A stretch of DNA of 64,000 nt from Massilia antarctica. Its GTDB lineage: Bacteria > Pseudomonadota > Gammaproteobacteria > Burkholderiales > Burkholderiaceae_D. The DNA lies in assembly GCF_015689335.1 (NCBI RefSeq), contig NZ_CP065053.1, positions 7,006,001 to 7,070,000 on the forward strand, written 5' to 3'. The notes under the pieces were generated by a model. That model was not told where the DNA came from, did not search any database, and saw nothing but the letters and a program-made list of their open reading frames with translations. Positions 4,190 to 16,687 of this stretch are shown here, piece after piece; positions within the stretch are counted from its first letter, which is position 1, and each line of letters opens with the position of its first letter. The translations under genes and the position numbers were made by a program.

Positions 4190-4972
4190 TCAACTGCCGC
4201 CGAACCAGTTATACCCCTGGTTTTCCCAGTAGCCGCCAGGGTAGGTATTGGTGACGAAAATGGCCTGGATATGCTTCGGATTCTTGTAGCCGAGCTTGGT
4301 CGGCATGCGCAGCTTCATCGGAAAGCCGTAGCGCGGCGGCAAGGGCTGGTCGTCATACGTCAGCGCCATCAGGGTTTGCGGATGCAGCGCCGTGGCCATG
4401 TCGATGCTCGTAAAATAATCGTCGGCGCATTGGAAGCCCACGTATTTGGCGCTCAGGTCGGCGCCCACATGGCGCAGGAAGTGCCCGAACGACACCCCGC
4501 CCCATTTGCCGATCGCGCTCCAGCCTTCCACGCAGATATGGCGCGTGATCTGGTCCTGCTGCGGCAGCGCGCGCAGCCGCGCCAGGGTCCACGGCTTGCG
4601 GTCGGCCACCATGCCGCTCAGCTCCAGGCGCCAGGCCTCGCCATCGATCTGGCGCACCTCCTCCTCGCCATAAAAGGCATTGAACGGAAACGGCCGCGTG
4701 ATCATGCTGGCCGGATAGGTGGGCGCCAGCCGCGCCGGGTCGAACAGCAAGCCCTGGACCCGGTCGTTGAGGCGCGAGATACCGGACAGCGCCTGCTCGA
4801 TGCTGTCCTGGTCGCCCGTGGAGCAGCCGGTCAGCAAACTCAGGCCGCCCAGGGTCAGGCTGCGCTCCAGGAAGGCCCGGCGCGATGGCTGGGCGATGCG
4901 TTTGACGGCGTCGGCCAGCATGGCGGCGCCCTCGGCGTGAACGACGATGTCGCGTGGTTTGAACAGTTTCAT
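4190..4972 (-). CDS. yedY1: Molybdopterin-dependent sulfoxide reductase, YedY/MsrP type
   Basis: This encodes 260 residues of the sulfite-oxidase fold, carrying the molybdopterin-binding domain over roughly residues 95-255. The conserved Cys ligand of molybdenum lies in RHICVEGWSAIG, and the C-terminal part has the typical KNPKHIQAIFVTNTYPGGYW. The N-terminus has an RRAF motif and a hydrophobic run ending in LLTGC, resembling a Tat-type or lipoprotein signal, so the enzyme acts in the periplasm. Family members reduce protein methionine sulfoxide using electrons from a membrane cytochrome b. Here that partner lies 26 bases upstream and the Met-rich substrate protein follows 73 bases downstream. 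The start at 4972 was chosen for the MKLFKPRD end; a longer frame has no signal. Confidence 0.85.
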   Translation of the reverse strand: MKLFKPRDIVVHAEGAAMLADAVKRIAQPSRRAFLERSLTLGGLSLLTGCSTGDQDSIEQALSGISRLNDRVQGLLFDPARLAPTYPASMITRPFPFNAFYGEEEVRQIDGEAWRLELSGMVADRKPWTLARLRALPQQDQITRHICVEGWSAIGKWGGVSFGHFLRHVGADLSAKYVGFQCADDYFTSIDMATALHPQTLMALTYDDQPLPPRYGFPMKLRMPTKLGYKNPKHIQAIFVTNTYPGGYWENQGYNWFGGS

Positions 4973-4998
4973 GATGGAGCTTTCCTGAACCGTGATTG

Positions 4999-5595
4999 TT
5001 AGCGGCCGCGCAGCATGGCCAGCAGGGTGCGCGGCACCAGGGCCACCATCGCCACATGCACGACGATGAAGGCGCACAGGCCCGTCATCGCAAAAAAGTG
5101 CACCAGGCGCGCGCCTTCGTAGCCCCCCATCAGCACCCGCAGCAGAGGGAACTGCACCGATTTCCACAGCACCAGACCGGACAGCACCAGCACGATGCTG
5201 TCGAGCATGACGAACAGGTAAGCGACGCGCTGCACGCTGTTGTAGTGGCGCGGATCGGCATGGGCCAGCTTGCCTTTCAGCGCAGCGCCCATGTCGAGCA
5301 GCAACTGGCGCGGCGAAATCGGAAAGAACTGGCGCCGCAGCCGTCCCGAGGCCAGGTTGAGCAGCAAATACAGGATGCCGTTGGCCAGCAGCAGCCACAT
5401 CGCGGCAAAATGCCATTGCAGCGCGCCGCCCAGCCAGCCGCCCAGGGTCACGCCGGGAGGAATCGCAAAGCCGAGAAAGCCGGTCGCGTTGTAGATGCGC
5501 CAGCCGCTGGCCACCAGCAGCAGCACGGCGAGCGCATTGAGCCAGTGCGTCAGGCGCAGCCAGAGCGGGTGGATGGTGCGCGCATCGCGGCTCAT
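4999..5595 (-). CDS. yedZ1: Membrane cytochrome b partner of YedY (YedZ1/b561-like)
   Basis: This encodes 198 residues starting at the ATG at 5595. Several hydrophobic segments and conserved His residues (RLTHWLNAL, LQWHFAAMW, RLVHFFAMTG, VVHVAMV) match a four-helix di-haem cytochrome b561 fold. Such proteins pass electrons from the quinol pool to a periplasmic oxidoreductase. Directly downstream lies the molybdoenzyme gene, so this is its likely membrane anchor and electron donor. A SigF-type promoter element lies about 145 bases upstream. A longer start at 5634 would add a basic, proline-rich leader without support. Confidence 0.85.
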   Translation of the reverse strand: MSRDARTIHPLWLRLTHWLNALAVLLLVASGWRIYNATGFLGFAIPPGVTLGGWLGGALQWHFAAMWLLLANGILYLLLNLASGRLRRQFFPISPRQLLLDMGAALKGKLAHADPRHYNSVQRVAYLFVMLDSIVLVLSGLVLWKSVQFPLLRVLMGGYEGARLVHFFAMTGLCAFIVVHVAMVALVPRTLLAMLRGR

Positions 5596-5738
5596 CGCGC
5601 GCCCCCGGCGGCGGCCGTTTTGACTTGGCGGCAATAAGCGGCATATGATGCCGGCGCGGTGCCGGTCGCTGTCAATACGGTGAACGCGGGAAACGGTTTC
5701 ATGGGCTTGGCCTGTTTATGAGTGACACTGACAGGTAG

Positions 5739-5764: not shown

Positions 5765-5827
5765 AGCCCAGGACAAATATTTTGCAAAATAATTTATATC
5801 GATCAAACCTTGTTACTAAAGGCCCCG

Positions 5828-6400
5828 ATGGAACGAATACCTGAGGTAAGCGTGTTGCGCGGCACCGAATTGCGCTTGCACGCCCTGTTCTTGCAAGGCC
5901 TCGACGGCGACACCCAGGCCTACCGTGCCTTTCTGCAGGCGACGGCGTCGCATTTGCGCGCCTTCCTGCGGCGGCGCCTGAACCGCTGGCCGGACGAGGT
6001 GGAAGATTTGGTGCAGGAATCGTTGCTGGCGATCCACAACCAGCGGCTCAGTTACGATACCGCCGTGCCGCTGACGGCGTGGATGGTGGCGATTGCTCGC
6101 TACAAGCTGGTCGACTGGCTGCGCCGCCATGCGCGCCGCGACGCCCTGACCGAGCCCTTGCCCGACGAAGACGCCTTCTTTTCCAGCGCCGACGCCGATG
6201 CCGGCGAGGCGCGGCGCGACTTGGGCAAGCTGCTGGCCACCCTGCCGGTCAAGCAGCGCGAGGCGATCGTCTACACCAAGCTCGACGGCCTGTCGGTGCG
6301 CGAAGCGGCCGATGCCCTGCAGATGAGCGAAGCGGCGGTCAAGGTCTCCGTCCACCGCGGCTTGAAAACCCTGGCAACCCTCTTGAAGGATGCGCTATGA
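5828..6400 (+). CDS. sigF: ECF sigma factor, SigF type
   Basis: This encodes 190 residues from the ATG at 5828. Region 2 is seen in DEVEDLVQESLLAIH and the following helix (PLTAWMVAIARYKLVDWLRR). Region 4 is seen in LPVKQREAIVYTKLDGLSVRE with the recognition helix AAVKVSVHRGLKTL. It overlaps the next gene by four bases (ATGA), and that gene encodes an NrsF-type membrane protein, the usual partner. In Caulobacter and Azospira this sigma/anti-sigma pair controls YedY-type oxidoreductase genes in response to oxidants or metals. The divergent promoter element and neighbours support the same assignment here. Confidence 0.88.
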   Translation: MERIPEVSVLRGTELRLHALFLQGLDGDTQAYRAFLQATASHLRAFLRRRLNRWPDEVEDLVQESLLAIHNQRLSYDTAVPLTAWMVAIARYKLVDWLRRHARRDALTEPLPDEDAFFSSADADAGEARRDLGKLLATLPVKQREAIVYTKLDGLSVREAADALQMSEAAVKVSVHRGLKTLATLLKDAL

Positions 6401-7038
6401 ACACCGATGACTTGATTGACATGCTCTCCAGCGGCCCGGACGTGCGCGTGCAGGCCGCCCCGGCCCGGACCGTCCTGCTGCCGCTGGGCGCCGGCTTGCT
6501 CGCCAGCACCATCATCGTGCTGGCCGGGCTGGGCCTGCGCCCGGACCTGGCCCAGGCGGCCACCCTGGCGCCGTTCTGGACCAAGCTCGCCTTCTCGCTC
6601 GCGCTGGCCGCGGCCGGGGCGCTGGCGCTCAAACGCCTGGCGACCCCGGGCGCGCGCAGCGCCGCGCTGCCGTTTCTGCTGAGCGCGCCCATCCTGCTGA
6701 TCTGGTGCCTGGCGGCAACGATGCTGTGGCAAGCGGCGCCCGAGCTGCGCGCCGAGCTGTTCTGGGGCCGCACCTGGCGCACGTGCCCGCTGCTGATCGC
6801 CTTGATCGCGCTGCCGCTGTTCGGCGCCGCGCTGCACGTCGTGCGCGGCCTGGCGCCAACCCGCCTGCGCCTGGCGGGCGCGGCCGCCGGATTCGGCGCC
6901 GGCGCCGCGGCAGCCGCCGTGTATTGCCTGCATTGCCCGGAGGCAAGCGCCGCATTCGTCGGCTTTTGGTATCTGCTCGGCATGCTGATCCCGGCGGCAG
7001 TCGGCGCCCTGATCGGCCCGCGCGTGCTGGCATGGTAG
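6397..7038 (+). CDS. nrsF: Anti-sigma factor NrsF (DUF1109), six-pass membrane protein
   Basis: This encodes 213 residues whose ATG overlaps the sigF stop codon, so translation is coupled. The short N-terminal part begins MNTDDLIDMLSS. Six hydrophobic segments then occur at roughly residues 28-48, 63-82, 92-112, 126-146, 158-180 and 188-208. This is the DUF1109/NrsF architecture, in which the membrane protein holds the sigma factor inactive. A pair of cysteines near YCLHCPE (about residues 176-179) lies in a late segment; conserved Cys residues take part in signal sensing in characterised NrsF proteins. There is no other membrane gene nearby that could be the partner of SigF. Confidence 0.85.
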   Translation: MNTDDLIDMLSSGPDVRVQAAPARTVLLPLGAGLLASTIIVLAGLGLRPDLAQAATLAPFWTKLAFSLALAAAGALALKRLATPGARSAALPFLLSAPILLIWCLAATMLWQAAPELRAELFWGRTWRTCPLLIALIALPLFGAALHVVRGLAPTRLRLAGAAAGFGAGAAAAAVYCLHCPEASAAFVGFWYLLGMLIPAAVGALIGPRVLAW

Positions 7039-7210
7039 TTTGCATTTTCCATGCCATGTGGCGAGCTTGTGCGCAACAAAATCAGCATTGAGCTAGATCA
7101 AAGTTCGTGCAGATAGGAGCACGTATAGTGGTTAATATCCATCCGGGCTCACCGAACATTTGAGCCTTGTCAAACATTGTGCAACTTTCTTTGACCGGAG
7201 AATGACGCGC

Positions 7211-8575
7211 ATGCAAGCCCGACTGGCCCTCCCGCTCTGGATCCACGCGTTCGAACCGGTCAGTGCGGCAGTGCGCACCAAGGTGGCGGCGGCGCTGGAA
7301 CAGGCCGGGCTGGAGCTGGAAGCGGGTGGTGCTCTTGCGGCCGGCTTCGGCCTGGTCTTGATCGACGGCGTCGATGGCACCGTGCTGGAGCGGGTGCGGA
7401 CCCTGGCCGCGAGCGCCAAGGTGCTGGCCATCGCGGTCGGCGCGCGCGCTCCGGCCACGGCCGACATGTGGGCCCTGCTGGAAGCCGGCGCCTTCGATGT
7501 GCTCAGCTGGACAGACGCCAGCGGCGACGCCGCCCAGGTGCGGGCCCGGCTGGAGCGGCGCGACGCCCTGCAACGCCTGGCCGACTCGCCCGCCGTGTGC
7601 AACTGCCTGGTCGGGGTCAGCCCGGCCTGGCGCGCGCTGGTGCACAGCGTGGTCGAAGTAGCCGCCTTCACCGAGTCGCCGGTACTCATCACCGGCGAAA
7701 CCGGTACCGGCAAGGACCAGATCGCGCAACTGATCCACCGCCTGGGCGGACGCGGCGAACTCACCGTGCTCGACTGCACCACCCTCACGCCCGAGCTGGC
7801 CGGCAGCGAACTGTTCGGCCACGAGCGCGGCGCCTTTACCGGGGCCGCCAACGCGCGCGACGGCGCCTTCGCGCTGGCCGACGGCGGCGTGCTCTTTCTC
7901 GACGAAGTGGGCGAACTGCCGCTGCCGCTGCAGGCGCAATTGCTGCGCGTGCTGCAGGAGCATGCCTATAAACGGGTCGGCAGCAATACCTGGCAACACT
8001 CGCACTTCCGGCTGGTGTGCGCCACCAACCGCAGCCTGGAAGACGACGTCGCCAACGGGCGCTTCCGGGCCGACCTGTACCACCGCATCGCCGCCTGGCG
8101 CTGCCGCACCCCGCCCCTGCGCGAACGCAGCGACGACGTGCTGCCGCTGGCGCGTCATTTTCTGGCGCTGCTGGCCGGACCGGGCGTGGCCTGCGAATTC
8201 GACGACGCCGTGCGCGAATTCCTGCTGCTGCGCCAGTATCCCGGCAATGTGCGCGAACTGCGCCAGACAGTGGCGCGCCTGTGGTACCGCCACAGCGGCC
8301 CCGGTCCGATCACCATCGGCGACCTCGCGCCCGACGAGCGGCCCGCGCGCGGCGCTACGCCGGCCTGCTGGCCCGATGTGCGCTTCGAGAGCGCGATCCG
8401 CGCAGCCATCGATTTGCGCATCGGCCTGGCGCGCATCAGCCAGGCCGCGGCCGACATCGCGATCCAGCTGGTGCTCGAGCAGGAAGGCGACAACAACCAG
8501 CGCGCCGCGCTGCGCCTGGGCGTGACCGACCGCGCGCTGCAAATCCGGCGCAAGGCCTGGGCCGAGGCCCACTGA
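7211..8575 (+). CDS. Sigma-54 enhancer-binding transcriptional activator
   Basis: This encodes about 454 residues. Residues 1-130 look like a reduced receiver-type alpha/beta domain with LIDGVDG where the acceptor Asp would lie. The AAA+ domain follows, with Walker A GETGTGKD (from about 161), the sigma-54 contact loop GAFTGA (about 207) and Walker B VLFLDEVGELP (about 226). The C-terminal 40 residues form a Fis-type helix-turn-helix. The start at 7211 has GGAG ten bases upstream; an ATG at 7202 is too close to it. The gene converges on the eight-gene operon at 8588-16596, which has a sigma-54 promoter and paired dyads, so it is the likely activator. No sensor kinase is adjacent. Confidence 0.88.
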   Translation: MQARLALPLWIHAFEPVSAAVRTKVAAALEQAGLELEAGGALAAGFGLVLIDGVDGTVLERVRTLAASAKVLAIAVGARAPATADMWALLEAGAFDVLSWTDASGDAAQVRARLERRDALQRLADSPAVCNCLVGVSPAWRALVHSVVEVAAFTESPVLITGETGTGKDQIAQLIHRLGGRGELTVLDCTTLTPELAGSELFGHERGAFTGAANARDGAFALADGGVLFLDEVGELPLPLQAQLLRVLQEHAYKRVGSNTWQHSHFRLVCATNRSLEDDVANGRFRADLYHRIAAWRCRTPPLRERSDDVLPLARHFLALLAGPGVACEFDDAVREFLLLRQYPGNVRELRQTVARLWYRHSGPGPITIGDLAPDERPARGATPACWPDVRFESAIRAAIDLRIGLARISQAAADIAIQLVLEQEGDNNQRAALRLGVTDRALQIRRKAWAEAH

Positions 8576-8587
8576 CGCCGACGCGCC

Positions 8588-9313
8588 TCAATGCCCGATC
8601 AGGCGCAGCAGGTTTTGGCCCAGCACCAGCGCCTCGTCATCCGGCGCCAGGCCCAGCATGCCGATCTTGGCCAGCTCCACGCCAGGATGCAGCCACGGAC
8701 CGTCGGAGCCGAACAGCAGCTTGTGCGGGCCGGCGCGGCGCACCGCCATCTCCAGCAGGTCGAAGCGGCGCACGCCGGCGCTGTCGGCGTGGATGTTGCG
8801 GTGGCGCGCCAGATGGTCGATCAGCGCCAGCTGCGCGCTCCAGTCGTCGGCAAAACTGCCCAGGTGCGGCAGGATGAAGTTCACGTCGGGGAACTGGCTG
8901 GCCAGCAGTTCGGCCACCGCCACCTCGCCCGTCACGTCGTACAGCACCGGCAGGCGGAAGAAGCGCGCCGTCTCGCACACCTCGCGCGAAATGCGCGCGT
9001 CGTGCCGGTGCAGCTTGATGCCCACGAAGCCGTATTCCTCCACCGCCACCCGCACCAGCGCGTGCACCCGCCCGCGGTCGCGCTGCGCATGGACGAAAGC
9101 GAAGCCGTAGAAGCGGCCCGGATCGGCGGCCACGATGCGCGCCACGCTGCGGTTGGCCTGCGCATAGTCGGAGTGAAAAGCGGCCAGCAGCACCGTGCGC
9201 GCGATGCCCGCCTGGCGCGCCCGCGCCAGATAGCGTTCGAGGCCGGCGTCGCTGTCCCACGGGCCGGAAAAGCCGTCGCCCTCGCCCGCATGGCAGTGGC
9301 AGTCGATGATCAT
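8588..9313 (-). CDS. Amidohydrolase family 2 metal-dependent hydrolase
   Basis: This encodes 241 residues of the TIM-barrel amidohydrolase-2 family. The N-terminus MIIDCHCHAGEG carries the metal-binding His-x-His. Further ligands appear in GIKLHRHDARI, FILPHLGSF and the late Asp of LLFGSDGPWLHP. The substrate is unknown; relatives act as decarboxylases or hydrolases on small carboxylates or lactones. The start at 9313 gives the motif directly at the N-terminus. It is the last gene of the sigma-54 operon and overlaps the stop of the glycine-zipper gene upstream by four bases, so it is co-translated. This suggests a chemical step in the pathway and not a chance neighbour. Confidence 0.8.
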   Translation of the reverse strand: MIIDCHCHAGEGDGFSGPWDSDAGLERYLARARQAGIARTVLLAAFHSDYAQANRSVARIVAADPGRFYGFAFVHAQRDRGRVHALVRVAVEEYGFVGIKLHRHDARISREVCETARFFRLPVLYDVTGEVAVAELLASQFPDVNFILPHLGSFADDWSAQLALIDHLARHRNIHADSAGVRRFDLLEMAVRRAGPHKLLFGSDGPWLHPGVELAKIGMLGLAPDDEALVLGQNLLRLIGH

Positions 9314-9960
9314 AGATCGAGCACGATGCGGCCACCGCCCTGGCGCCGCCACGTGCCGCTGCTGCCGCCACTGCTGCTTCTGCCTGCGAGAGCGGATGAG
9401 GACTCGCGCAGTTGCGGCATGTGGCAGCGCAGCGCCGCATCGAGCGCGTGGCGCGCGGCGCGCTGCGGATCGGCGCCCTGCCCCGCCAGGCCGGCCTGCT
9501 GCGCCGCGGTGCCGGCGATGCGCACGAAGCGGCGCGCCATTTCCAGCTCGCGCTCCTCGCCTTCCAGGCCGACAGTCTCCATCTCCAGGGCCTTGGCCAG
9601 GGCGCCGCCGAGCGCGCCGCCGATGGCCGTGCCCACGCCAGGAATCGGAATGAAGGACCCGAGCGCGCTGCCCACGAACGGCAGCGCGGTCTTGGCCAGG
9701 CCCTTGAGCATGCCGCCGAGCGGCTTGGCGACCTTGCCGATGAAGGAGCCGACCTTCTTGACGCCCTTCCAGATTCCCTTGAACATATTGCCGAGGAACT
9801 GTTCGAGTTCTTCCTCGCTGGCGACCGACATCAGTTCCATCGCCAGCGCGATTTCTTCCTGCTCCCCGAAGGGACCGGGCGCTTCGAATTCGAGCATTTC
9901 CAGTTCACCCATTTCGGCCTGCTGGCGGCATTTGGCGCAACCACATCCTGACTCTTGCAT
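9310..9960 (-). CDS. Glycine-zipper protein A of sigma-54 operon
   Basis: This encodes 216 residues of no named family. The order is a Cys-bearing leader (SGCGCAKC), an acidic/aromatic motif ELEMLEFE at about 19-26, a helix with ELMSVASEEELEQFLG, then a glycine-zipper core at about 60-125 (GSFIGKVAKPLGGMLKG, PGVGTAIGGALGGALAK). Next comes an acidic helix GLEGEERELEMARRFVRIA and a tail ending GTWRRQGGGRIVLDL. Two proteins at the other end of the operon share the helix, core, FVR(I/L)A and W-x-R-Q tail. Glycine zippers often insert in or line membranes. Toxin, pore-former, carrier or structural roles are all possible. Confidence 0.7.
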   Translation of the reverse strand: MQESGCGCAKCRQQAEMGELEMLEFEAPGPFGEQEEIALAMELMSVASEEELEQFLGNMFKGIWKGVKKVGSFIGKVAKPLGGMLKGLAKTALPFVGSALGSFIPIPGVGTAIGGALGGALAKALEMETVGLEGEERELEMARRFVRIAGTAAQQAGLAGQGADPQRAARHALDAALRCHMPQLRESSSALAGRSSSGGSSGTWRRQGGGRIVLDL

Positions 9961-9996
9961 GATGATCTCCTTGGGTTGATGAAGGGTTGGCGAACC

Positions 9997-10638
9997 TTAG
10001 CGCCAGGATTCGCCGAACAACTCGGCTTCGAACTCGGTGCGCGTGTTGGTCAGCGTCGGTTTTTTCGTGCCGGTCGGGTTCGGCTTGACACCCATATTTT
10101 TGTGCACTTTCTTTTCCAGGGCGCGCCGCTGGTCGTCCGTCAGGGCGGTTTTGGCGACGAAGACCGTATGTTTGGCCACGTCCAGTCCCAGTATGGTGGC
10201 GCACAGCAGATGCTGCTGGAGGCGGCGCTTCACGCTCTCGCTCTGGCCGCTGTAGGCGCGCTTGCCTGTCGGAGCATCGAACTCGATCAGGTAGAGACCC
10301 GCCACATCGGCGTCCGGCGAGCGCACCGCATCGCGCAGCGAACCAATGCGTTTGTACTGTGGCGCCCCGCCCCCCATCTTGTCGAGTGCCGGTTTGATGG
10401 TCTTGGGTGTTTCATCCTGCGGTTCGTCGGCGTCTGGCGCAGCGTCGTACCCATACGGTTCCGGCCACGGCGCCAGCACCGGGTAACGCCAGCCGCCCCA
10501 CGCCGGCCAGCGCGGCCCCGGCGGCCTGGCCGACCAGGTGCGCCCCATCGGGGGCCGTGGCGCGCGCGCCGGCATCCCACGGCGTGCGCCGCGCTCTTGT
10601 TCCATCCCGAACTCCAGCATTTCAAATTCCGTATTCAT
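9997..10638 (-). CDS. GIY-YIG-like domain protein with shared leader
   Basis: This encodes 213 residues. The N-terminus MNTEFEMLEFGMEQE repeats the EMLEF motif of the neighbouring glycine-zipper protein A. A Pro/Trp/Arg-rich linker (residues 20-75) follows. From about 108 the sequence reads AGLYLIEF, then KRAYSGQSESVKRRLQQHL. This fits the GIY-YIG layout: G-(I/L)-Y, a second Tyr-x-G, then Arg and His on the next helix. The second motif is YSG and not YIG. Whether it cuts nucleic acid is unknown. Its ATG lies inside the end of the PLP-enzyme gene (17-base overlap). Confidence 0.65.
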   Translation of the reverse strand: MNTEFEMLEFGMEQERGARRGMPARAPRPPMGRTWSARPPGPRWPAWGGWRYPVLAPWPEPYGYDAAPDADEPQDETPKTIKPALDKMGGGAPQYKRIGSLRDAVRSPDADVAGLYLIEFDAPTGKRAYSGQSESVKRRLQQHLLCATILGLDVAKHTVFVAKTALTDDQRRALEKKVHKNMGVKPNPTGTKKPTLTNTRTEFEAELFGESWR

Positions 10639-11695
10639 ACTCCCTCCTTGTATCTGCGACTGAACCTGCCTGCGCGCGCAGGCAGGCCGCCAGCAGCACC
10701 AGCGCGCGTTCGATGTCGTCCGGCGCATGGCGCGCAGTGACGATGAAACTGAGCGTGGCCTGAGTGCCCGCCCGCTGCAGCACCGCATCGACGCCGGCGC
10801 TGCGCAGGCAGGCGTGCAGCGCCACGCCATCGGTATTGCGTCCCAGCGCCAAGGTCTGCACCGGAAACGCGCTGGCACGCAGCCCGATGCCATGCCTGGC
10901 CGCGCCGGCGCGCCACTGCGCCACGCGGCACCACAGGCGCCGCCGCAACTGGTCGCCGTGCGCGCGGTTGATGCGCAGCGCCGCCAGCGCGGCCCGGATC
11001 GAGGCCACCGACGGCGGGCTGGAATGCACGCGCGCCTGGCTCGATTGCCCGAAGCGCCGCACCAGGTCCGCGCTGGCGCACAGCACCGCAAGCGGCGCGC
11101 CGAAGGCTTTCGACAGCGAACTGCCGACCACCACGTGCGGCCCTTTGATGCCGTGCCGGCGCAGCGAACCGCCACCGCCGCTGCCAAACAGGCCGATGAC
11201 CTGGGTGTCGTCCAGCACCAGCCAGCCGCCCGCCTCGCGCGCCAGCGCGGCGTAGGCCGCCAGCGGCGGCGCCTGGGCCGCGCCGGGCGAGTAGCCGTCG
11301 GCCAGGATCAGCGGTCGCCTCCCCTGTCGCCGCGCCGCCTGCGCCAGCCGGCGCGCCGCGCCCACGTCGCCATGCCCGAACACCGTCAACGGAGTGCCCT
11401 TTGCCGCCGCGCGTTCGGCGCCGATCCGCGCAATCGGGTAGCTGGCGCCGTCGACCAGGATCGCCACCGGGGTCTGCGCCATCAACTCGAACAGGTCGCA
11501 GAACAGGTGCAGGGTCGATGGCAGCAGGGTCGCCGCCTCGCAGCCGCACAGCAGCGCCAGCGCCGCCGCCAATTGCGCCGCGCCCGGCGGCTCGCCGCTG
11601 GCCGCCGGCCGTCCCAGGGTCAGCGCATCCCACTCGCCCAGCGCCGTGCTGGGATGGCGCAGGCCGAGGTACAGGGCGTTGGCGAAGTCCAGCAT
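10622..11695 (-). CDS. PLP-dependent acyltransferase/aminotransferase, AONS-like
   Basis: This encodes 357 residues of fold-type I. The PLP lysine is in GSSLSKAFGAPLAVL (Lys196), preceded by the cofactor-binding Asp in WLVLDDTQVIGLFG. The layout matches the alpha-oxoamine synthase group (8-amino-7-oxononanoate, 2-amino-3-ketobutyrate and sphingoid-base synthases), though it is shorter and the usual DxAH is D-D-T-Q here. It might condense an amino acid with an acyl thioester. It is not next to bio or kbl/tdh genes, so a dedicated role in this operon is more likely. The start at 11695 gives the LDFANALYLGL opening, 13 bases after the upstream stop. Confidence 0.75.
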   Translation of the reverse strand: MLDFANALYLGLRHPSTALGEWDALTLGRPAASGEPPGAAQLAAALALLCGCEAATLLPSTLHLFCDLFELMAQTPVAILVDGASYPIARIGAERAAAKGTPLTVFGHGDVGAARRLAQAARRQGRRPLILADGYSPGAAQAPPLAAYAALAREAGGWLVLDDTQVIGLFGSGGGGSLRRHGIKGPHVVVGSSLSKAFGAPLAVLCASADLVRRFGQSSQARVHSSPPSVASIRAALAALRINRAHGDQLRRRLWCRVAQWRAGAARHGIGLRASAFPVQTLALGRNTDGVALHACLRSAGVDAVLQRAGTQATLSFIVTARHAPDDIERALVLLAACLRAQAGSVADTRREYEYGI

Positions 11696-11708
11696 GCCGC
11701 GCTCTTGC

Positions 11709-13862
11709 TCAGGCCATCCGCGCCTGCTGGTCCAGGCGCTGGCGCAACAGGATCGAGGGCAAGGTGCCTTCCGCCTTGGGATCGCGTGCATCGACCGTCA
11801 GATCGACCCCGGTGGCGGCGCGGTAGGCGTGGATATAGCCCTGGATCTGCGGACGCCAGAAGCGCGCCCAGTTGAAGGCCTGGGTCGGCTCGTAGATATC
11901 GCTCCAGGCGCCGTAGCGCACCGACAGCAGCACCTGTTCGCCGAACATGGCCAGGCTGCGGAAGTGCATCACGCTGGTGTCGGACCATCCCTGCAGCTTC
12001 TTCATGGCGTCGACCCGGTCCATCCACGGTTCCGGATAGGCGACCATGATGCGGGTCGGGAGGAACTCGCGGAACTCGGGCCGCGCCAGCATCCACTGCT
12101 GCATCAGCATTTCGATACGTGCCGTCGACGGCAGGTCGCCGAACTGGTTGTGCGCGCCCTGCGACAGGATCAGGTGCACTTCCTTGAGGCCGTTCAAGAC
12201 CGGGAAGGCGTCGGCCTTGACGGTGGTGTCGTCGTCCTGGCGGTAGAAGGAGGTGCACAGGCGCAGCAGGTAGTGGAAGGCTTCCAGGAACTTCGAACGC
12301 GTGTCGGCCGGGCGGAAATGCTGGACCGCCTTGCCGTCGAGCCGCACCCCGTAATGGTGGTCGTACTCGTAATTGCGCCGCACCACGGTGAGGCGATGTT
12401 GTTCGTCCTGCGTGTAGCCCCAGATCAGGTTATTCAGTGGGCGCAGCGGATCGATTTCAAGGTTCGCCAGCGGGTCGGCGCGGCCCAGCGCGCGCACGTT
12501 CTGGAAGCGCTGGGTGATCGCATTCATGGTCTGCACCAGCATCCCCTCTTCGTGCCAGTAAGACCAGATCAGCTCCAGCAGGCACGGATTGGCCAGCTTT
12601 TGCTGAACGATGCCGAAGCACAGATCGGCCTCGCCCTCCTGCCCGCGCAAGAGGTGGATCGGCACGTCGGGCAGCTTGCGCCGGATGATCGCAAGGTAAG
12701 GCAGCACCTTGGTGCCGTCGACCGTCTCTTCGAGATAGTCGGTGTTGAAGGTCCGTTCCAGGTCGCGCGTGGCGGGGATGTCGCGCCGGTCCAGGTAAGC
12801 CTGGTCCTCGACCGGATTGAAATGCGTCGGCTGGCTGAGCACCCCGCAGTTGACCATCACGAACGCCTCGGTGGCGACCTTGAGCACGCGGTAGGCTTCC
12901 GAATCGTTGAAGGGCAGCGCGCGGCGCTGGCGCAGCTGCTCGAACAACGCGCTCTTGGCCTCGAAACCGGGGCCGCGATTGCCGGGGGTGCAGAACAGCG
13001 CATCCATGAAGTTCAGGTAGTTCGTAAACGACATCGCATCGGTGCTGTTGCGGATCAGGGTCCACAGCGGCAGGTCGTCGGTCGGCTCGGTCTCGGTACG
13101 CGTCATCGACACGCCGATGTTGCCCGAGATCGGGCTTGGCGTGCGCTCGTCGGCGACAAAACCCTGGCGGATGCCGATCAGGGCCGGCGGCGCCAGCGCC
13201 AGGTCCATTTCCGATGCCGGCACGACCACCGCGCCAGCCGCGGCGGCGGCGACGGCGCCGGGAGCGGGGACGGCGAGGGAGCGGCGCGCGAACCCCAGCA
13301 CCGCCTCGAACTGCTGCGGGCCGGCATAGTTCACCACGCGCGAGAATTCGTACTGGTCTTTCTCGCTCACGTTCCATCCGGACGAGGACACTACCCGCAC
13401 ATGCGGCTTGAGGGCGCTGTTCTGGTTGTTGCTGAAGCAGATCTTCGCCACCGCCCGGTCCGACACGCGCGCCGCGTTGCAGGGGGTGGAGTGGCAGTCG
13501 ACCGCCTCGAACCTGAGTTCGGCTTTCAGCTCCAGCGCCAGCTGGAAGCAGACCACGGCGCGGCAGCCGCCATCGACCTGCACCAGGCGCGGCGCGACCA
13601 CGGGGTAGTGTTCGTACGCCACCACGTAGCTGCCCGGCGCCAGGTTGGCGACGGTGACCTCGCCGGCGCTGCCGGTGACGGCCAGCGCTTCCAGGTTGGC
13701 CGCCGACGCGGTCCAGGTGGACGCATCGAATCCTTTGTCGCTCGGCGCCAGACGGTAGATACCGACCGTCGCGTTCGACACCGGCGCGCCGCTCTGGGCC
13801 TCGTGCACGGTCACCTCGAGCGACCCCGCGCGGGCTTCCTTCACATTGTTCTTGCTGCTCAT
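11709..13862 (-). CDS. Large operon protein with carboxypeptidase-regulatory-like N-domain
   Basis: This encodes 717 residues. Residues 12-105 look like a carboxypeptidase regulatory-like or transthyretin-type beta sandwich: SLEVTVHEAQSGAPVSNATV, then GEVTVANLAPGSYVVAYEHY. A cysteine-containing beta region with an Ala/Pro linker follows to about 225. The rest, about 490 residues, is unknown and has many Trp, Tyr and Phe residues (WSYWHEEGMLVQTMNAI, NLIWGYTQDEQHRLTV, FNWARFWRPQIQGYIHAY). No signal peptide is seen. It sits ten bases after the metallopeptidase gene and 13 before the PLP enzyme. A catalytic or scaffold role cannot be chosen from sequence. Confidence 0.65.
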   Translation of the reverse strand: MSSKNNVKEARAGSLEVTVHEAQSGAPVSNATVGIYRLAPSDKGFDASTWTASAANLEALAVTGSAGEVTVANLAPGSYVVAYEHYPVVAPRLVQVDGGCRAVVCFQLALELKAELRFEAVDCHSTPCNAARVSDRAVAKICFSNNQNSALKPHVRVVSSSGWNVSEKDQYEFSRVVNYAGPQQFEAVLGFARRSLAVPAPGAVAAAAAGAVVVPASEMDLALAPPALIGIRQGFVADERTPSPISGNIGVSMTRTETEPTDDLPLWTLIRNSTDAMSFTNYLNFMDALFCTPGNRGPGFEAKSALFEQLRQRRALPFNDSEAYRVLKVATEAFVMVNCGVLSQPTHFNPVEDQAYLDRRDIPATRDLERTFNTDYLEETVDGTKVLPYLAIIRRKLPDVPIHLLRGQEGEADLCFGIVQQKLANPCLLELIWSYWHEEGMLVQTMNAITQRFQNVRALGRADPLANLEIDPLRPLNNLIWGYTQDEQHRLTVVRRNYEYDHHYGVRLDGKAVQHFRPADTRSKFLEAFHYLLRLCTSFYRQDDDTTVKADAFPVLNGLKEVHLILSQGAHNQFGDLPSTARIEMLMQQWMLARPEFREFLPTRIMVAYPEPWMDRVDAMKKLQGWSDTSVMHFRSLAMFGEQVLLSVRYGAWSDIYEPTQAFNWARFWRPQIQGYIHAYRAATGVDLTVDARDPKAEGTLPSILLRQRLDQQARMA

Positions 13863-13872
13863 GTCAATCTCC

Positions 13873-15192
13873 TTAGTGGAAAGTCAAAGGTGCCCGGGGA
13901 AGCGCCGGCGCTCGCGCGTCCAGCGAGGCGCACAGGAAGCTCGTATCGAGTGTGCTGCGCAGCGCCCAGTGCGTCAGCAGCTTGGCCAGCAGGACGTTTT
14001 CGTCTTCCGGCCCGACCAGGCCATCGGCGCGCGCCTGGCCCAGCACCGCGAACACCAGCGATGGCGGGGCGCGGTACATCTGCGCGGGCGCGCCCTCCCA
14101 GCGCCGGTACAGGGCCACCAGCGCGGCCGGCTGGCGCCGCGCCACATCGAGCACCGCGGGCAAGGTTTTCCCGCGCAGCGCGGCCGGCTGGTGCCGGATC
14201 AGGAGCGCGACAAAGTCCGGCATGCCGCGCCGCAGCCGCCCCAGGAGATCGACCGTCTCCGGCGCCAGGGTCGCGCTCGGGTAGTAGTCGTGCCACACCT
14301 TGGCCAGGCGCTCCCACTGCGGATGGGGATACAGGGCCTGGCCCATCGCGCAACTAAGCATCACGCGGATCCATGGGATCGGATGGGGATCGTCGGGACT
14401 CAAGCGAAACACGAACACGCGCGGCAGGCTGACCACGCCGATCAGGCCCAGGGTCGACACCACGCCAACCCGCGCCACCGACCAGAAATCGGCCACGATC
14501 TCGGAAATCCAGCGCTCCCACCACTGCCACACCTCGCGCTGCGCCGGGTCGCTGCGCTGCCTGGCCTGCAGTTCGGGGCGCAGCGAGTTGACCAGGTCGA
14601 GCAGGGCCGCGCCCTGGTGTCCGACCTCGTGGATCAGCGACGAGGCGATGCCGCTGCCGATCATGCGTTCGCGCGGCACCCGCACCACCGCCACCGGGTT
14701 TTCGCCGCCGCCCGGCAGGCGGGTGCGCGCGCGCCGGATCGCCGCACCCGGCCCGCGGTCGAGATAACAGACCACCGGCGGCAGGCGGTAATAGTCGCCC
14801 GACAGGGTCAGGGCGTCGGCCGCGACCGCGTCCAGGCCCGACAGCCAGACCCCGTTTTCGTGCTCGCTACGCTGGGTGATGACGTCGTTGAACAGGTCGA
14901 ACTGGGTCAAGGTCGCATTGAACTTGAGGCGCAAGAACGTGAAGCGGCGCTGCGCCTCGGCCGCGCTGGCGGTCTCGCGCGCACCGGCCAGCCAGTGCTG
15001 GAAGGCCGCGATCAGCGCCTGCAGTTCGCGCCGCCCCGTGACCAGGTAGCGCTCAAGCGCCGACTGGGCCGACGGCAGCAGCGCGGCCGCCGGTACCATG
15101 GGCTCGATCAGGGCAAACGGGCGGACCCGCGCCAGCCTGGTTTGCAGGGAGCGCGCCTCCTGTTCGAGCAGCGCCGAGGCATAGGGGCTCAT
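13873..15192 (-). CDS. Putative zinc metallopeptidase (HEVGH...EIVAD)
   Basis: This encodes 439 residues. The central motif SSLIHEVGHQ gives an HEXXH zinc site (His188, Glu189, His192). Forty-three residues after the first His comes SEIVADFW, an ExxAD helix (Glu231, Asp235) like the third-ligand helix of gluzincin peptidases such as M48. A hydrophobic segment VVSTLGLIGVVSLPRVFVF follows, and the rest is helical. I know no named family with this overall layout. It could process the glycine-zipper proteins encoded by the same operon. It is six bases downstream of glycine-zipper protein B. Confidence 0.65.
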   Translation of the reverse strand: MSPYASALLEQEARSLQTRLARVRPFALIEPMVPAAALLPSAQSALERYLVTGRRELQALIAAFQHWLAGARETASAAEAQRRFTFLRLKFNATLTQFDLFNDVITQRSEHENGVWLSGLDAVAADALTLSGDYYRLPPVVCYLDRGPGAAIRRARTRLPGGGENPVAVVRVPRERMIGSGIASSLIHEVGHQGAALLDLVNSLRPELQARQRSDPAQREVWQWWERWISEIVADFWSVARVGVVSTLGLIGVVSLPRVFVFRLSPDDPHPIPWIRVMLSCAMGQALYPHPQWERLAKVWHDYYPSATLAPETVDLLGRLRRGMPDFVALLIRHQPAALRGKTLPAVLDVARRQPAALVALYRRWEGAPAQMYRAPPSLVFAVLGQARADGLVGPEDENVLLAKLLTHWALRSTLDTSFLCASLDARAPALPRAPLTFH

Positions 15193-15197
15193 GGCTG

Positions 15198-15935
15198 TCA
15201 GGCGCCGTAGAGGACGATCTTGTTGCCCTGGCGGCTCCAGCGGCCGCTGGCGCCACGCCCGCCGCCGGCCGCCATGCCCGTGCCCGACGACATACCCGTG
15301 CCGTTGGCGCCGAAGCCCGCACCGCCCCCAGCCGCGGCACCGCCGCAGCTGCCGCAGCCGCCGCCGGCGCCGCGTCCGAGCAAGCCTGGCGCATGCTGGC
15401 GCGCGGCCGCCGTTGCCGCATTCTGGGCGATCATGCGCGGGTCGCCCGAGGCGGGTGCCTGCGATGCCTTGTGCACCGTGTCGGCGGCCAGGCGCACGAA
15501 CTGGCGCGCGCCTTCGAACTCGCGGTCCTCGCCGCTCATTTCCCCTTCCAGCCCGAGCGCGCCGCCGGCCGCCGAGGCCAGGCCGCTGCCGATCTTGGCG
15601 CCCAGCGGGCCGCCGAAATAGCCGCCGATGGCGCCGCCGGCGAGCGGCAGGGCTTTTTTGGCCACGCCTTTGAGCACGCCGCCGATGGCCTGCCCGATCG
15701 GCGAGCGAATCACGCGGCCGGCCGTGGCGCCGACCTTGCGAATGAAGTCGCCCAGGAAGCGGTCCAGCTCCGCTTCGTTATTCACGTTCAGCAGCTCCTG
15801 GGCGAATTCGGCTTCCTGCTGTTCGTTCAGGCCCGCTTCGCCACTCCACTCTCCCTGGCCGAATTCGAACTGTTCGCCCTCGTAGCTGGAGGTTTCCTGG
15901 CCATATTCCATGGTGGTGCGGTCGATGTCATGCAT
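15198..15935 (-). CDS. Glycine-zipper protein B of sigma-54 operon
   Basis: This encodes 245 residues, paralogous to proteins A and C. The acidic/aromatic leader has EYGQE and QFEFGQGEW. A helix ELLNVNNEAELDRFLGDF precedes a long Gly/Ala zipper (about 80-150: QAIGGVLKGVAKKALPLAGG, then GYFGGPLGAKIGSGL). Next come EDREFEGARQFVRLA and AARQHAPGLL, a very Gly-rich stretch with a CGSCGG pair, and the tail GRWSRQGNKIVLYGA. The start at 15935 avoids an unrelated upstream extension. It lies 58 bases after protein C and 5 before the metallopeptidase gene. There is no Sec signal; the leader may be a dedicated sorting or cleavage region. Confidence 0.7.
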   Translation of the reverse strand: MHDIDRTTMEYGQETSSYEGEQFEFGQGEWSGEAGLNEQQEAEFAQELLNVNNEAELDRFLGDFIRKVGATAGRVIRSPIGQAIGGVLKGVAKKALPLAGGAIGGYFGGPLGAKIGSGLASAAGGALGLEGEMSGEDREFEGARQFVRLAADTVHKASQAPASGDPRMIAQNAATAAARQHAPGLLGRGAGGGCGSCGGAAAGGGAGFGANGTGMSSGTGMAAGGGRGASGRWSRQGNKIVLYGA

Positions 15936-15993
15936 GATGGACTCCCAAAGAAGAGTGAAACAACAAAATGCCCGGATGGACCATCCGTCCGGA

Positions 15994-16596
15994 TCAGCAA
16001 TCGTGAACAATCAGCCGGCCCGCCTGGCGGGTCCAGCGTCCGTGCGCGGCCTGCGGCAGCGCGATGCGCGGCAGCAGGCCGGGTGCATGTTGACGCGCGG
16101 CGGCTTGCACGGCGGCGCGCGCGTTCTGCGGCGAGGCGCTGCCGGCCTTGCCGGCATGGCGCGCCGCTTCGTCGGCAAGGCGTACCAGTTGGCGCGCCAG
16201 GATGAATTCCTTGTCCTCGGGGCTGAGGCCTTCGAGTTCGAGGCCGAGCATGCGTGCGCCGAGGTTGACGTGGGCCGCCTTGGAGCGCGCACCGGACATG
16301 CTGGGACGCAGGGGAGCGAGCAGCGGCTCGAGGGCGTGCATCAGTTGCGCGACCAGCAGTGGGCCCATGGGCGAACGCGCTACCCGCGCACCGAGCACGC
16401 CGGCGCCGCCGATGGCGCGGCCCAGCACGCGGCGCAGATCGGCGGGCTGGTTCGCTTCGAGCAGTTCGGCGGCCAGCGCCAGGTCGGCGCTGTCGTCGGA
16501 GAGCGGGCCGGCTTCGCCTTCCTGCTCGTTCGCGCGCGGCGCGGCGTCGGTAAAGATGTCGAAGACCGGACTGTATTCAAGCAGGCGACGGTTCAC
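15994..16596 (-). CDS. Glycine-zipper protein C, first gene of sigma-54 operon
   Basis: This encodes 200 residues from a GTG at 16596 with AAGGGG seven bases upstream. It shares with A and B the helix ELLEANQPADLRRVLG, a shorter and less glycine-rich central region (GRAIGGAGVLGARVARSP), the stretch LELEGLSPEDKEF followed by ARQLVRLADEA, the motif ARQHAPGLL, and a tail GRWTRQAGRLIVHDC. The leader MNRRLLEYSPVFDIF is shorter and lacks the ELEF string. It is the promoter-proximal gene; the predicted sigma-54 start site is about 65 bases before the GTG. Function is unknown. Confidence 0.7.
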   Translation of the reverse strand: MNRRLLEYSPVFDIFTDAAPRANEQEGEAGPLSDDSADLALAAELLEANQPADLRRVLGRAIGGAGVLGARVARSPMGPLLVAQLMHALEPLLAPLRPSMSGARSKAAHVNLGARMLGLELEGLSPEDKEFILARQLVRLADEAARHAGKAGSASPQNARAAVQAAARQHAPGLLPRIALPQAAHGRWTRQAGRLIVHDC

Positions 16597-16671: not shown

Positions 16672-16687
16672 TGCAAGGGCTGTGCCA
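16672..16687 (-). promoter_or_regulatory. Sigma-54 (RpoN) promoter of the glycine-zipper operon
   Basis: On the minus strand the site reads TGGCACAGCCCTTGCA, matching the TGGCACG-N4-TTGC(A/T) consensus at every key position including the -24 GG and -12 GC. It faces the operon and would start transcription about 65 bases before protein C. The opposing regulator gene encodes an activator with an intact GAFTGA loop. Confidence 0.8.

What the first reader, a model, noticed from the sequence alone, without database searches (positions are those of the whole stretch)
7211..16596. Undescribed sigma-54-controlled operon of glycine-zipper proteins, metallopeptidase, PLP enzyme and amidohydrolase
Eight minus-strand genes (8588-16596) are packed with overlaps or gaps under 60 bases and face a sigma-54 activator gene. 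The set combines three paralogous zipper proteins, a HEXXH peptidase, an AONS-like enzyme, a GIY-YIG-like protein, an amidohydrolase and a 717-residue unknown. I know of no described system with this composition. A membrane-active peptide or protein made, modified and processed by operon enzymes is one possibility; an envelope stress or contact-dependent system is another.
Basis: partly seen in the sequence, partly recalled or inferred. Interest (0 to 1): 0.85.

Follow-up and report, generated by a model that had tools for sequence, protein, structure and literature searches.

The report
Sigma-54 cassette with interchangeable envelope-attacking cargo
This stretch of a bacterial chromosome carries an apparently undescribed gene cassette, found in distant bacteria, in which unknown but strongly conserved core proteins sit beside swappable cell-wall-cutting, DNA-cutting or protein-cutting proteins that often share a short end tag, so it may be a new kind of bacterial weapon or lysis machine.

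Summary
The eight-gene minus-strand operon (8588-16596) and the convergent sigma-54 activator gene are real; gene starts need small corrections and the first zipper paralogue lacks a clear zipper. The operon is one copy of a widespread cassette. Its HEXXH protein and the conserved half of its 717-residue protein match no Pfam, NCBIfam or PDB family significantly. Both hit the same 4 of 300 order genomes and the same 4 of 398 phylum genomes (own included), and the HEXXH protein is 64-69% identical in loci labelled as other phyla. Among 61 named loci with enough downstream sequence, the 717 gene is in 61, PLP in 60, amidohydrolase in 57, the activator in 56. A -24/-12 site (10 or 11 of 11) precedes 47 of 74 operons versus 3.7% of control windows. 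Between PLP and amidohydrolase lies variable cargo: peptidoglycan-binding modules, cell-wall hydrolases, nucleases, trypsins. Of 65 first cargo proteins 53 share an N-terminal FExxPF-like tag; zipper proteins end in GRWxRxGxxIxL. In some hosts nuclease and zipper are fused. Best reading: a sigma-54-switched effector cassette working like a polymorphic toxin system. Delivery, target and core biochemistry are unknown; no structure was predicted.

The parts
16672..16687 (-). Sigma-54 -24/-12 promoter element TGGCACAGCCCTTGCA (11 of 11 consensus positions)
   Evidence: Read directly; the identical element precedes the operon in L012, L013 and L016; at least 10 of 11 in 47 of 74 loci vs 3.7% of random windows (that scan missed the window's own site because it used the long ORF start)
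15994..16596 (-). zipA, 200 aa, degenerate zipper paralogue, C-terminal tag HGRWTRQAGRLIVHDC
   Evidence: no GxxxG enrichment
15198..15935 (-). zipB, 245 aa, glycine-zipper protein, N-terminal MHDIDRT, C-terminal tag SGRWSRQGNKIVLYGA
15201..15248 (-). C-terminal GRW tag of zipB
   Evidence: Read; tag conserved in relatives
13873..15192 (-). HEXXH protein, 439 aa, predicted gluzincin-type metallopeptidase; HEVGH at 14617-14631, third-ligand candidate E231 at 14500-14502
   Evidence: No Pfam, NCBIfam, PADLOC, PHROGs or PDB match at the limits used; H188, E189, H192, E231 invariant in 46 sequences
11709..13862 (-). 717-aa core protein: variable N-terminal part with weak Ig/prealbumin-like matches, conserved C-terminal ~460 aa of unknown fold
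   Evidence: CarboxypepD_reg match to residues 15-84 (E 0.0012, below its cut-off)
10622..11695 (-). PLP enzyme of the alpha-oxoamine synthase (BioF-like) family; Schiff-base lysine (K228 of the long ORF) at 11108-11110
   Evidence: that lysine and DDTQ invariant in 21 sequences; role of the lysine by family knowledge
9997..10638 (-). Cargo position: GIY-YIG protein with N-terminal tag MNTEFEMLEF, acidic-to-basic leader and GIY-YIG domain (about 10000-10299)
   Evidence: Pfam E 0.023 only, below cut-off; GLY/YSG, arginine and TN motifs recur across cassettes
9310..9960 (-). zipC, 216 aa, glycine-zipper protein with N-terminal CxCxxC; fused to cargo domains in other hosts
8588..9313 (-). Amidohydrolase_2 family enzyme
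   Evidence: Pfam E 8.2e-18; HxH and other candidate metal-site residues conserved in 51 of 51 aligned
7160..8575 (+). Sigma-54 activator: AAA+ with GAFTGA loop, C-terminal HTH; diverged receiver-like N-terminal domain
   Evidence: HTH by weak Pfam match (E 0.24) and by eye

Best explanation
A sigma-54-switched effector (toxin or lytic protein) cassette. Shown by sequence: a sigma-54 activator gene beside the operon, a conserved -24/-12 element, conserved core genes, and interchangeable cargo most of which carries a shared leader. Inferred: when the activator senses an unknown signal, sigma-54 polymerase makes zipper proteins, the core pair and the cargo together. The cargo's acidic FExxPF-type N-terminal tag and the zipper proteins' C-terminal GRW tag are recognised by the core (HEXXH peptidase and/or the 717 protein), which matures or loads cargo. 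Zipper modules insert into or permeabilise a membrane, letting cell-wall hydrolases and nucleases reach peptidoglycan and DNA of another cell (or of lysing siblings). The PLP enzyme and amidohydrolase are accessory tailoring or protective functions. Here the cargo is a GIY-YIG nuclease plus its zipper partner zipC.
For: Same cassette in loci labelled as several phyla (best identities to other groups 65-71%, close to the between-genus median of 72% inside the home family group), with co-occurring parts. Of 48 cargo proteins scanned (of 86 candidates; E up to 0.01, not curated cut-offs): PG_binding_1 in 19, OmpA 5, Amidase_2 4, trypsins 3, GIY-YIG 2, VanY, M74, M23, SLT, HNH and pre-toxin VENN 1 each. 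FExxPF-like leader in 53 of 65 first cargo proteins vs 6.7 after shuffling. GRW C-terminus in 122 of 7591 ORFs, all on the operon strand. GIY-YIG and zipper module in one ORF in at least 8 of 30 GIY rows; by eye a 793-aa protein with peptidoglycan-binding, GIY-like, zipper and amidase regions (L047, L068). Cargo evolves faster than core: GIY 55% vs HEXXH 93% between window and L014. GxxxG 137 vs 51 expected in 24 zipper proteins. A glycine zipper is needed for target-cell entry of the T6SS DNase Tde1 (PMC10240207, abstract). Sigma-54 site, rpoN in 22 of 22 hosts.
Against: No experiment and no structure. No separate immunity gene fits in the window operon, and none is conserved (a cargo-specific one would not show there). 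No transporter among the nine proteins and no evident signal peptides (by eye). T6SS sheath gene in 13 of 22 host genomes tested, phage-type sheath in 8 of 22, neither in 7 of 22, so no contractile machine is common to all; the window's own genome has both, so a T6SS or eCIS route is not excluded for it. Zipper hydrophobicity is moderate (19-residue maximum 1.59). The window's zipA has no zipper. The 717 core has no assigned function. Tag patterns were written after seeing sequences, the first-cargo choice favoured acidic starts, and loci are not independent.
Confidence: 0.42

Rival explanations
1. Self-directed programme: a sigma-54-triggered lysis or envelope-remodelling module in which cargo hydrolases open the producer's own wall and nucleases degrade its DNA, for altruistic lysis, vesicle or DNA release.
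For: No separate immunity gene and no transporter in the window operon, no evident signal peptides (by eye); peptidoglycan hydrolases and nucleases together; sigma-54 control.
Against: Cargo diversity and faster cargo evolution fit conflict with others better; spread of a suicide module needs kin benefit; nuclease fused to a zipper module suggests membrane crossing.
Confidence: 0.2
2. Peptide or small-molecule antimicrobial pathway: zipper proteins are precursors matured by the HEXXH peptidase, with the PLP enzyme and amidohydrolase as tailoring or resistance enzymes.
For: Leader-like acidic N-termini; ERG junction in 24 of 65 vs 7.7 after shuffling; active-site residues of PLP enzyme and amidohydrolase conserved.
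Against: Much cargo consists of large folded enzyme domains; no PLP match in L094, L098, L099 and no amidohydrolase match in L098 while zipper, HEXXH and 717 stay; no ABC exporter among the window's nine proteins.
Confidence: 0.14
3. Envelope stress or maintenance operon: tagged peptidoglycan-binding enzymes and zipper proteins repair or anchor the producer's own envelope.
For: PG_binding_1 in 19 of 48 cargo proteins and OmpA in 5; PspF-type sigma-54 activators control envelope stress (established knowledge).
Against: Nuclease domains (GIY-YIG, HNH) in the same slot; presence in about 1% of sampled genomes (4 of 300, 4 of 398) and cross-phylum similarity do not suggest housekeeping.
Confidence: 0.1
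4. Anti-phage defence cassette with nuclease effectors.
For: Patchy distribution; nuclease domains; weak match of the GIY protein to PADLOC candidate PDC-S14 (E 6.7e-5) and of the activator's AAA part to RtcR/PspF models.
Against: No PADLOC match (E up to 0.1) for HEXXH, 717, PLP, zipper or amidohydrolase proteins; cell-wall hydrolases and trypsins as cargo are atypical (own knowledge).
Confidence: 0.05

Closest known systems
Cdz contact-dependent killing by glycine-zipper proteins (Caulobacter; PMC5380434, passages seen)
   Same: Paralogous glycine-zipper proteins as proposed membrane-active agents; many copies thought horizontally acquired; induced under special conditions
   Different: [quoted passage not shown] here the window's zipper proteins are 200-245 aa, the operon has no transporter or evident immunity gene, and it has HEXXH, 717, PLP, amidohydrolase and enzyme cargo
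T6SS effector Tde1 with glycine zipper and DNase domain (PMC10240207, abstract and outline seen)
   Same: Glycine zipper combined with a nuclease; proposed membrane crossing
   Different: T6SS-dependent with an adaptor; 9 of 22 cassette genomes show no T6SS sheath gene, though the window's own genome does
PVC/eCIS toxins with PVC-metallopeptidase (PMC3482391, passages seen)
   Same: HEXXH metallopeptidase linked to varied toxin domains; OmpA-type domain among toxins; described as lacking adjacent immunity genes
   Different: There the peptidase is a domain inside the toxin with an HExxHxxQ-E signature; here it is a separate 439-aa protein without Pfam match; phage-type sheath in 8 of 22 hosts, the own genome included
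Polymorphic toxin systems in general (PMC3482391, passages)
   Same: Constant N-terminal targeting part with interchangeable enzymatic domains
   Different: Own sigma-54 activator and unique core pair; no immunity gene seen in the window; tags differ from those described in the passages seen
RtcR/PspF/NorR-type sigma-54 activators
   Same: AAA+ domain with GAFTGA, C-terminal HTH
   Different: Below the cut-off of each of the 25 NCBIfam models shown (of 35 matched); RtcR similarity covers only residues 133-375, not the sensor part

Membership tests
Sigma-54-dependent operon | -24/-12 promoter element upstream | tested here: met
   Window 16687-16672, 11 of 11; at least 10 of 11 in 47 of 74 loci vs 3.7% of control windows
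Sigma-54-dependent operon | Adjacent activator with GAFTGA and rpoN in the genome | tested here: met
   GAFTGA in the alignment of 19 activators, GAYTGA in one of them; rpoN in 22 of 22 hosts; actual transcription not tested
Cdz glycine-zipper bacteriocin system | Type I secretion genes in the cluster | tested here: not met
   No transporter match among the window's nine proteins; for other loci only the clusters, which were not searched family by family
Cdz glycine-zipper bacteriocin system | Small immunity membrane protein in the cluster | tested here: inconclusive
   None among the window's nine genes; ORFs under 60-70 aa and cargo-specific genes elsewhere not examined
T6SS effector set | T6SS present in every host genome | tested here: not met
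   VipA in 13 of 22 cassette genomes, own genome included with 3 matches; several of the 22 are MAGs
PVC/eCIS toxin | Contractile sheath in every host genome | tested here: not met
   PF04984 in 8 of 22, own genome included with 4 matches; the family also covers phage sheaths
PVC/eCIS toxin | PVC-metallopeptidase domain | tested here: not met
   No Pfam match of the HEXXH protein at E up to 1; that Pfam holds this domain as DUF4157 is recalled
Polymorphic toxin system | Shared targeting region with varied enzymatic domains | tested here: met
   Leader in 53 of 65 first cargo proteins; varied Pfam domains
Polymorphic toxin system | Adjacent immunity proteins | tested here: inconclusive
   None evident in the window and none conserved across genera, but cargo-specific immunity genes would not show in that test
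Polymorphic toxin system | Toxicity to target cells | not testable with these tools
   Needs experiment
Gluzincin metallopeptidase | HEXXH plus downstream glutamate ligand | tested here: met
   H188, E189, H192, E231 invariant in 46 sequences; fold and activity not tested
Alpha-oxoamine synthase (BioF family) | PLP lysine and family similarity | tested here: met
   bioF E 1.5e-23, below the equivalog cut-off; lysine invariant in 21
GIY-YIG nuclease | GIY and YIG motifs with arginine and asparagine | tested here: met
   GLY...YSG, R and TN present in the window copy; Pfam score below cut-off; motif roles recalled
Phage-borne cassette | Present in phage or viral records | tested here: not met
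   No tblastn match in 50,697 phage records; 8 pattern matches in viral contigs, none confirmed

The most novel reading that the evidence does not exclude
A new class of bacterial effector-delivery system without a dedicated transporter: a cytoplasmic core (HEXXH peptidase plus 717 protein) recognises FExxPF and GRW terminal tags, builds cargo-loaded glycine-zipper complexes, and these complexes themselves carry cell-wall hydrolases and nucleases across the membranes of other cells, under a dedicated sigma-54 switch, and the whole cassette spreads between phyla.
Probability: 0.22. Interest if true: 0.92.

Novelty: categorically new. Interest (0 to 1): 0.72.

Why it matters
The HEXXH protein and the conserved half of the 717 protein have no significant relatives in Pfam, NCBIfam, PADLOC, PHROGs or the PDB by sequence at the limits used, yet the HEXXH protein stays 64-69% identical to the window's in loci labelled Nitrospira, Planctomycetia, Chloracidobacterium and others, and the two genes were never found apart in the two genome samples searched. 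The terminal tags give a handle for predicting cargo by sequence and make the system testable: tag a reporter, switch on the activator, and see where it goes. If it is an effector system it would add a delivery principle with no recognised secretion machine.

Tried and rejected
Rejected: phage origin (no match in phages; 8 pattern matches in viral contigs, none confirmed). Rejected as a general rule, but not for the window's own genome, which has both gene families: T6SS or eCIS effector set. Rejected: RtcR RNA-repair regulator (similarity only over residues 133-375, below cut-off). Led nowhere: profile searches of the HEXXH and 717 families against the PDB at E up to 5 (none for HEXXH, best E 0.16 to a surface-anchor protein for the N-terminal part of 717), Pfam and NCBIfam on remote members, a proteomics paper on ammonia oxidisers (PMC5960693, passages; nothing tied to these genes in the passages seen). 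Structure prediction was asked for 25 times and never ran, so no fold search was made. The literature searches cover open-licence PubMed Central only; absence of a description is limited to them.

Results against the reading: no immunity gene or transporter evident in the window operon; zipA not a zipper; the looser acid-RG junction pattern is barely above shuffles (29 of 65 vs 20.7) and the ERG form is in 24 of 65 (vs 7.7); 12 of 65 first cargo proteins lack the leader pattern; PLP or amidohydrolase without a match in some cassettes, and L089 also without an activator match. In one search the window itself scored only 8 because of the ORF start used; the true site lies outside the scanned stretch. 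In one search the first cargo ORF was picked as the most acidic of the four longest candidates, which favours acidic leaders; shuffles keep composition but not relatedness. Tag patterns were written after seeing examples. Loci are the best 80 of 222. For one search I passed on 48 of the 86 candidates (itself at most three loci per genus label), leaving out likely shadow ORFs, stand-alone zipper proteins and near duplicates. Gene-to-gene distance correlations were moderate, 0.53-0.73 over 51 loci, so parts have also been exchanged or evolve at different rates. In some searches only the best 2-5 first-look places per genome were scored.


Full report
What was checked. The window lies in a 7.43 Mb single-contig genome. 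Coordinates with corrected starts: zipA 15994-16596, zipB 15198-15935, HEXXH 13873-15192, 717 11709-13862, PLP 10622-11695 (most homologues start at MLDF or a close variant), GIY-YIG 9997-10638, zipC 9310-9960, amidohydrolase 8588-9313, activator 7160-8575 on the plus strand. Neighbours in the operon overlap by up to 17 bases or are less than 60 bases apart. The activator is convergent with the operon. A -24/-12 element, TGGCACAGCCCTTGCA, lies at 16687-16672, about 75 bases before zipA.

The core is widespread. Protein searches gave 2803 relatives of the 717 protein, 5627 of the HEXXH protein and 1224 of zipB, each among the 8000 candidates scored. A scan of one genome per species with a HEXXH alignment found 222 places encoding a relative; the best 80 were kept. 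They come from Massilia, Janthinobacterium, Duganella, Variovorax, Nitrosomonas, methanotrophs, Bradyrhizobium, Methylocapsa, Cellvibrio and others, and from MAGs labelled Nitrospira, Planctomycetia (on a 1.57 Mb contig), Gemmataceae, Chloracidobacterium, Methylomirabilis and Chloroflexi (a 5 kb contig). These non-Pseudomonadota copies are 64-69% identical to the window's HEXXH protein. Their best identities to loci of other groups, 65-71%, are close to the between-genus median inside the home family group, 72%, which suggests horizontal transfer; no tree was made. Plasmid records: four with a copy at 52-64% identity (Ensifer, two Rhizobium, Paraburkholderia phymatum) and one remote relative at 26%.

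Co-occurrence. Among the 80 named loci HEXXH is present in 80 by construction, 717 in 78, PLP in 70, amidohydrolase in 58 and the activator in 56; among the 61 with at least 9 kb downstream the counts are 61, 61, 60, 57 and 56. Two of the five activator absences (L047, L053) fall at the end of the fetched stretch. Independent of that selection, profiles of HEXXH and 717 were run over the same samples: in 300 genomes of the order both hit the same 4, and in 398 genomes of the phylum both hit the same 4, the own genome included each time. That makes six distinct genomes; in each the two matches lie within 0.8 kb, and none has one without the other. Among 100 near relatives, own genome included, 10 carry the 717 gene. 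All 56 activators found lie on the strand opposite to the operon genes; in L078 the activator lies upstream instead of downstream. Clustering of all ORFs of at least 70 aa showed the cassette families in 21-32 of 32 genus labels; the largest family outside, by position, reached 7, and the printed examples are from the home family group. An M20-type peptidase sits inside the cassette in 12 loci of 7 genus labels (M20 Pfam matches in 2 of 48). A remote relative in Paraburkholderia sp. PGU19 keeps zipper-like genes, a 26% identical HEXXH protein, an M20-like peptidase (by eye) and a 60% identical amidohydrolase but replaces the rest (L092).

Regulation. Scanning upstream of the first zipper gene in 74 loci (73 fetched loci and the window) gave a site with at least 10 of 11 matches in 47, against 3.7% of random windows of the same length from the same loci (at least 9: 86% vs 14%). 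The window's own 11-of-11 site was outside the scanned stretch. Nineteen activators were aligned; the GAFTGA loop is kept (GAYTGA in one). The N-terminal ~120 residues vary; a GAxDVL stretch with invariant D113 recalls a receiver domain, but by eye no aspartate is conserved at the expected phosphorylation place. All 22 cassette genomes tested (own and 21 others) encode sigma-54.

Enzymes. The HEXXH family has H188, E189, H192 and E231 invariant in 46 sequences, the pattern of a gluzincin; no library matched it. The PLP enzyme resembles BioF (E 1.5e-23, below the equivalog cut-off) and keeps the lysine and DDTQ in 21 of 21. The amidohydrolase keeps HxH and other candidate metal-site residues in 51 of 51. 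The 717 protein has a variable N-terminal part with weak Ig-like matches and a conserved C-terminal half of unknown fold.

Cargo. The space between PLP and amidohydrolase is variable in length and content. Of 86 candidate ORFs there, 48 were scanned singly against Pfam at E up to 0.01: PG_binding_1 in 19, PG_binding_3 in 8, OmpA in 5, Amidase_2 in 4, trypsin families in 3, M20 in 2, GIY-YIG in 2, Extensin-like_C in 2, and VanY, M74, M23, SLT, HNH and pre-toxin VENN in 1 each, besides Aspzincin_M35, TrAA12 and Metallothio_Euk in 1 each. Pfam under-detects the GIY-YIG domain: 30 of the 31 rows show it, the window included (the L062 row is spurious). The first cargo protein usually starts with a short acidic-aromatic tag of the type FExxPF: 53 of 65 by a pattern that gives 6.7 after shuffling, followed by a switch from net negative (mean -3.9 in residues 1-35) to net positive (+6.5 in residues 36-100). 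Zipper proteins, and at least one cargo protein that seems to lack a zipper (L060), end in GRWxRxGxxIxLxG: 122 of 7591 ORFs, all on the operon strand. GIY-YIG and the start of a zipper module share one ORF in at least 8 of those 30 rows, and Nitrosomonas-type loci have a 793-residue protein with, by eye, leader, peptidoglycan-binding module, GIY-like region, zipper and amidase. These fusions tie the window's separate GIY and zipC genes together. The zipper family was found only at the cassette in 8 of 8 genomes searched. Between the window and L014 the GIY protein is 55% identical while the HEXXH protein is 93%.

Interpretation. Varied cell-wall, DNA and protein-cutting domains behind a common tag, coupled to a membrane-type zipper module, is how polymorphic effectors are built, so the best reading is a sigma-54-switched effector or lytic cassette. 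Shown: the anatomy, the promoter element, the conservation, the tags and the fusions. Inferred: processing by the HEXXH protein, loading by the 717 protein, membrane passage by zipper modules, and the target. It did not pass as a member of the systems tested: the T6SS sheath gene is missing in 9 of 22 hosts and phage-type sheaths in 14 of 22; 7 have neither, although the window's own genome has 3 and 4 matches, so these routes are open for it. There is no type I exporter among the window's nine proteins, unlike Cdz (PMC5380434, passages). PVC toxins, described as lacking adjacent immunity genes and carrying a HEXXH domain, differ in architecture (PMC3482391, passages). Tde1 shows that a glycine zipper can carry a DNase into target cells (PMC10240207, abstract). 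No immunity gene is evident in the window; whether other cassettes have cargo-specific ones was not tested. Without exporter or immunity gene, programmed self-lysis stays a serious rival.

Limits. No structure prediction ran. The pattern statistics were made after looking at the data and the loci are related. The named loci are the best 80 of 222. Several hosts are MAGs. The claim that the system is undescribed rests on six searches of open-licence papers.

Noticed in passing
L013:16724-19561 (also L014 and L015): In three Massilia species a 3 kb insert between the amidohydrolase and the sigma-54 gene holds an ORF of tandem HHPSLA repeats, a 172-aa protein (199 in L014), a SagB-like nitroreductase and a GNAT-like acetyltransferase; it looks like a repeat-core modified-peptide cluster. 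Names are by eye, not from a search; not present in the window.
   Followed up: partly
window 5810-7038: ECF-type sigma factor gene followed by a probable NrsF-like anti-sigma gene, upstream of the activator; names by eye.
   Followed up: no
window 4190-5634: Genes resembling a molybdopterin oxidoreductase with a cytochrome b561-type membrane partner, on the minus strand; names by eye.
   Followed up: no
L092:6496-15952: Remote cassette subtype on a Paraburkholderia megaplasmid: two zipper-like proteins with long acidic stretches, a remote HEXXH protein, 652-aa and 388-aa proteins without a significant family match, M20-like peptidase, amidohydrolase; a LuxR-type HTH protein is encoded on the opposite strand (by eye).
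   Followed up: partly
   Followed up: no
L069, zipper region 8436-9072: A Planctomycetia zipper gene is split over two overlapping frames, a frameshift in the gene or in the assembly.
   Followed up: no
L031:16819-17979 and L045:7847-8977: An acyltransferase-3-like membrane protein gene lies between amidohydrolase and activator in a Janthinobacterium and a Rugamonas; name by eye.
   Followed up: no
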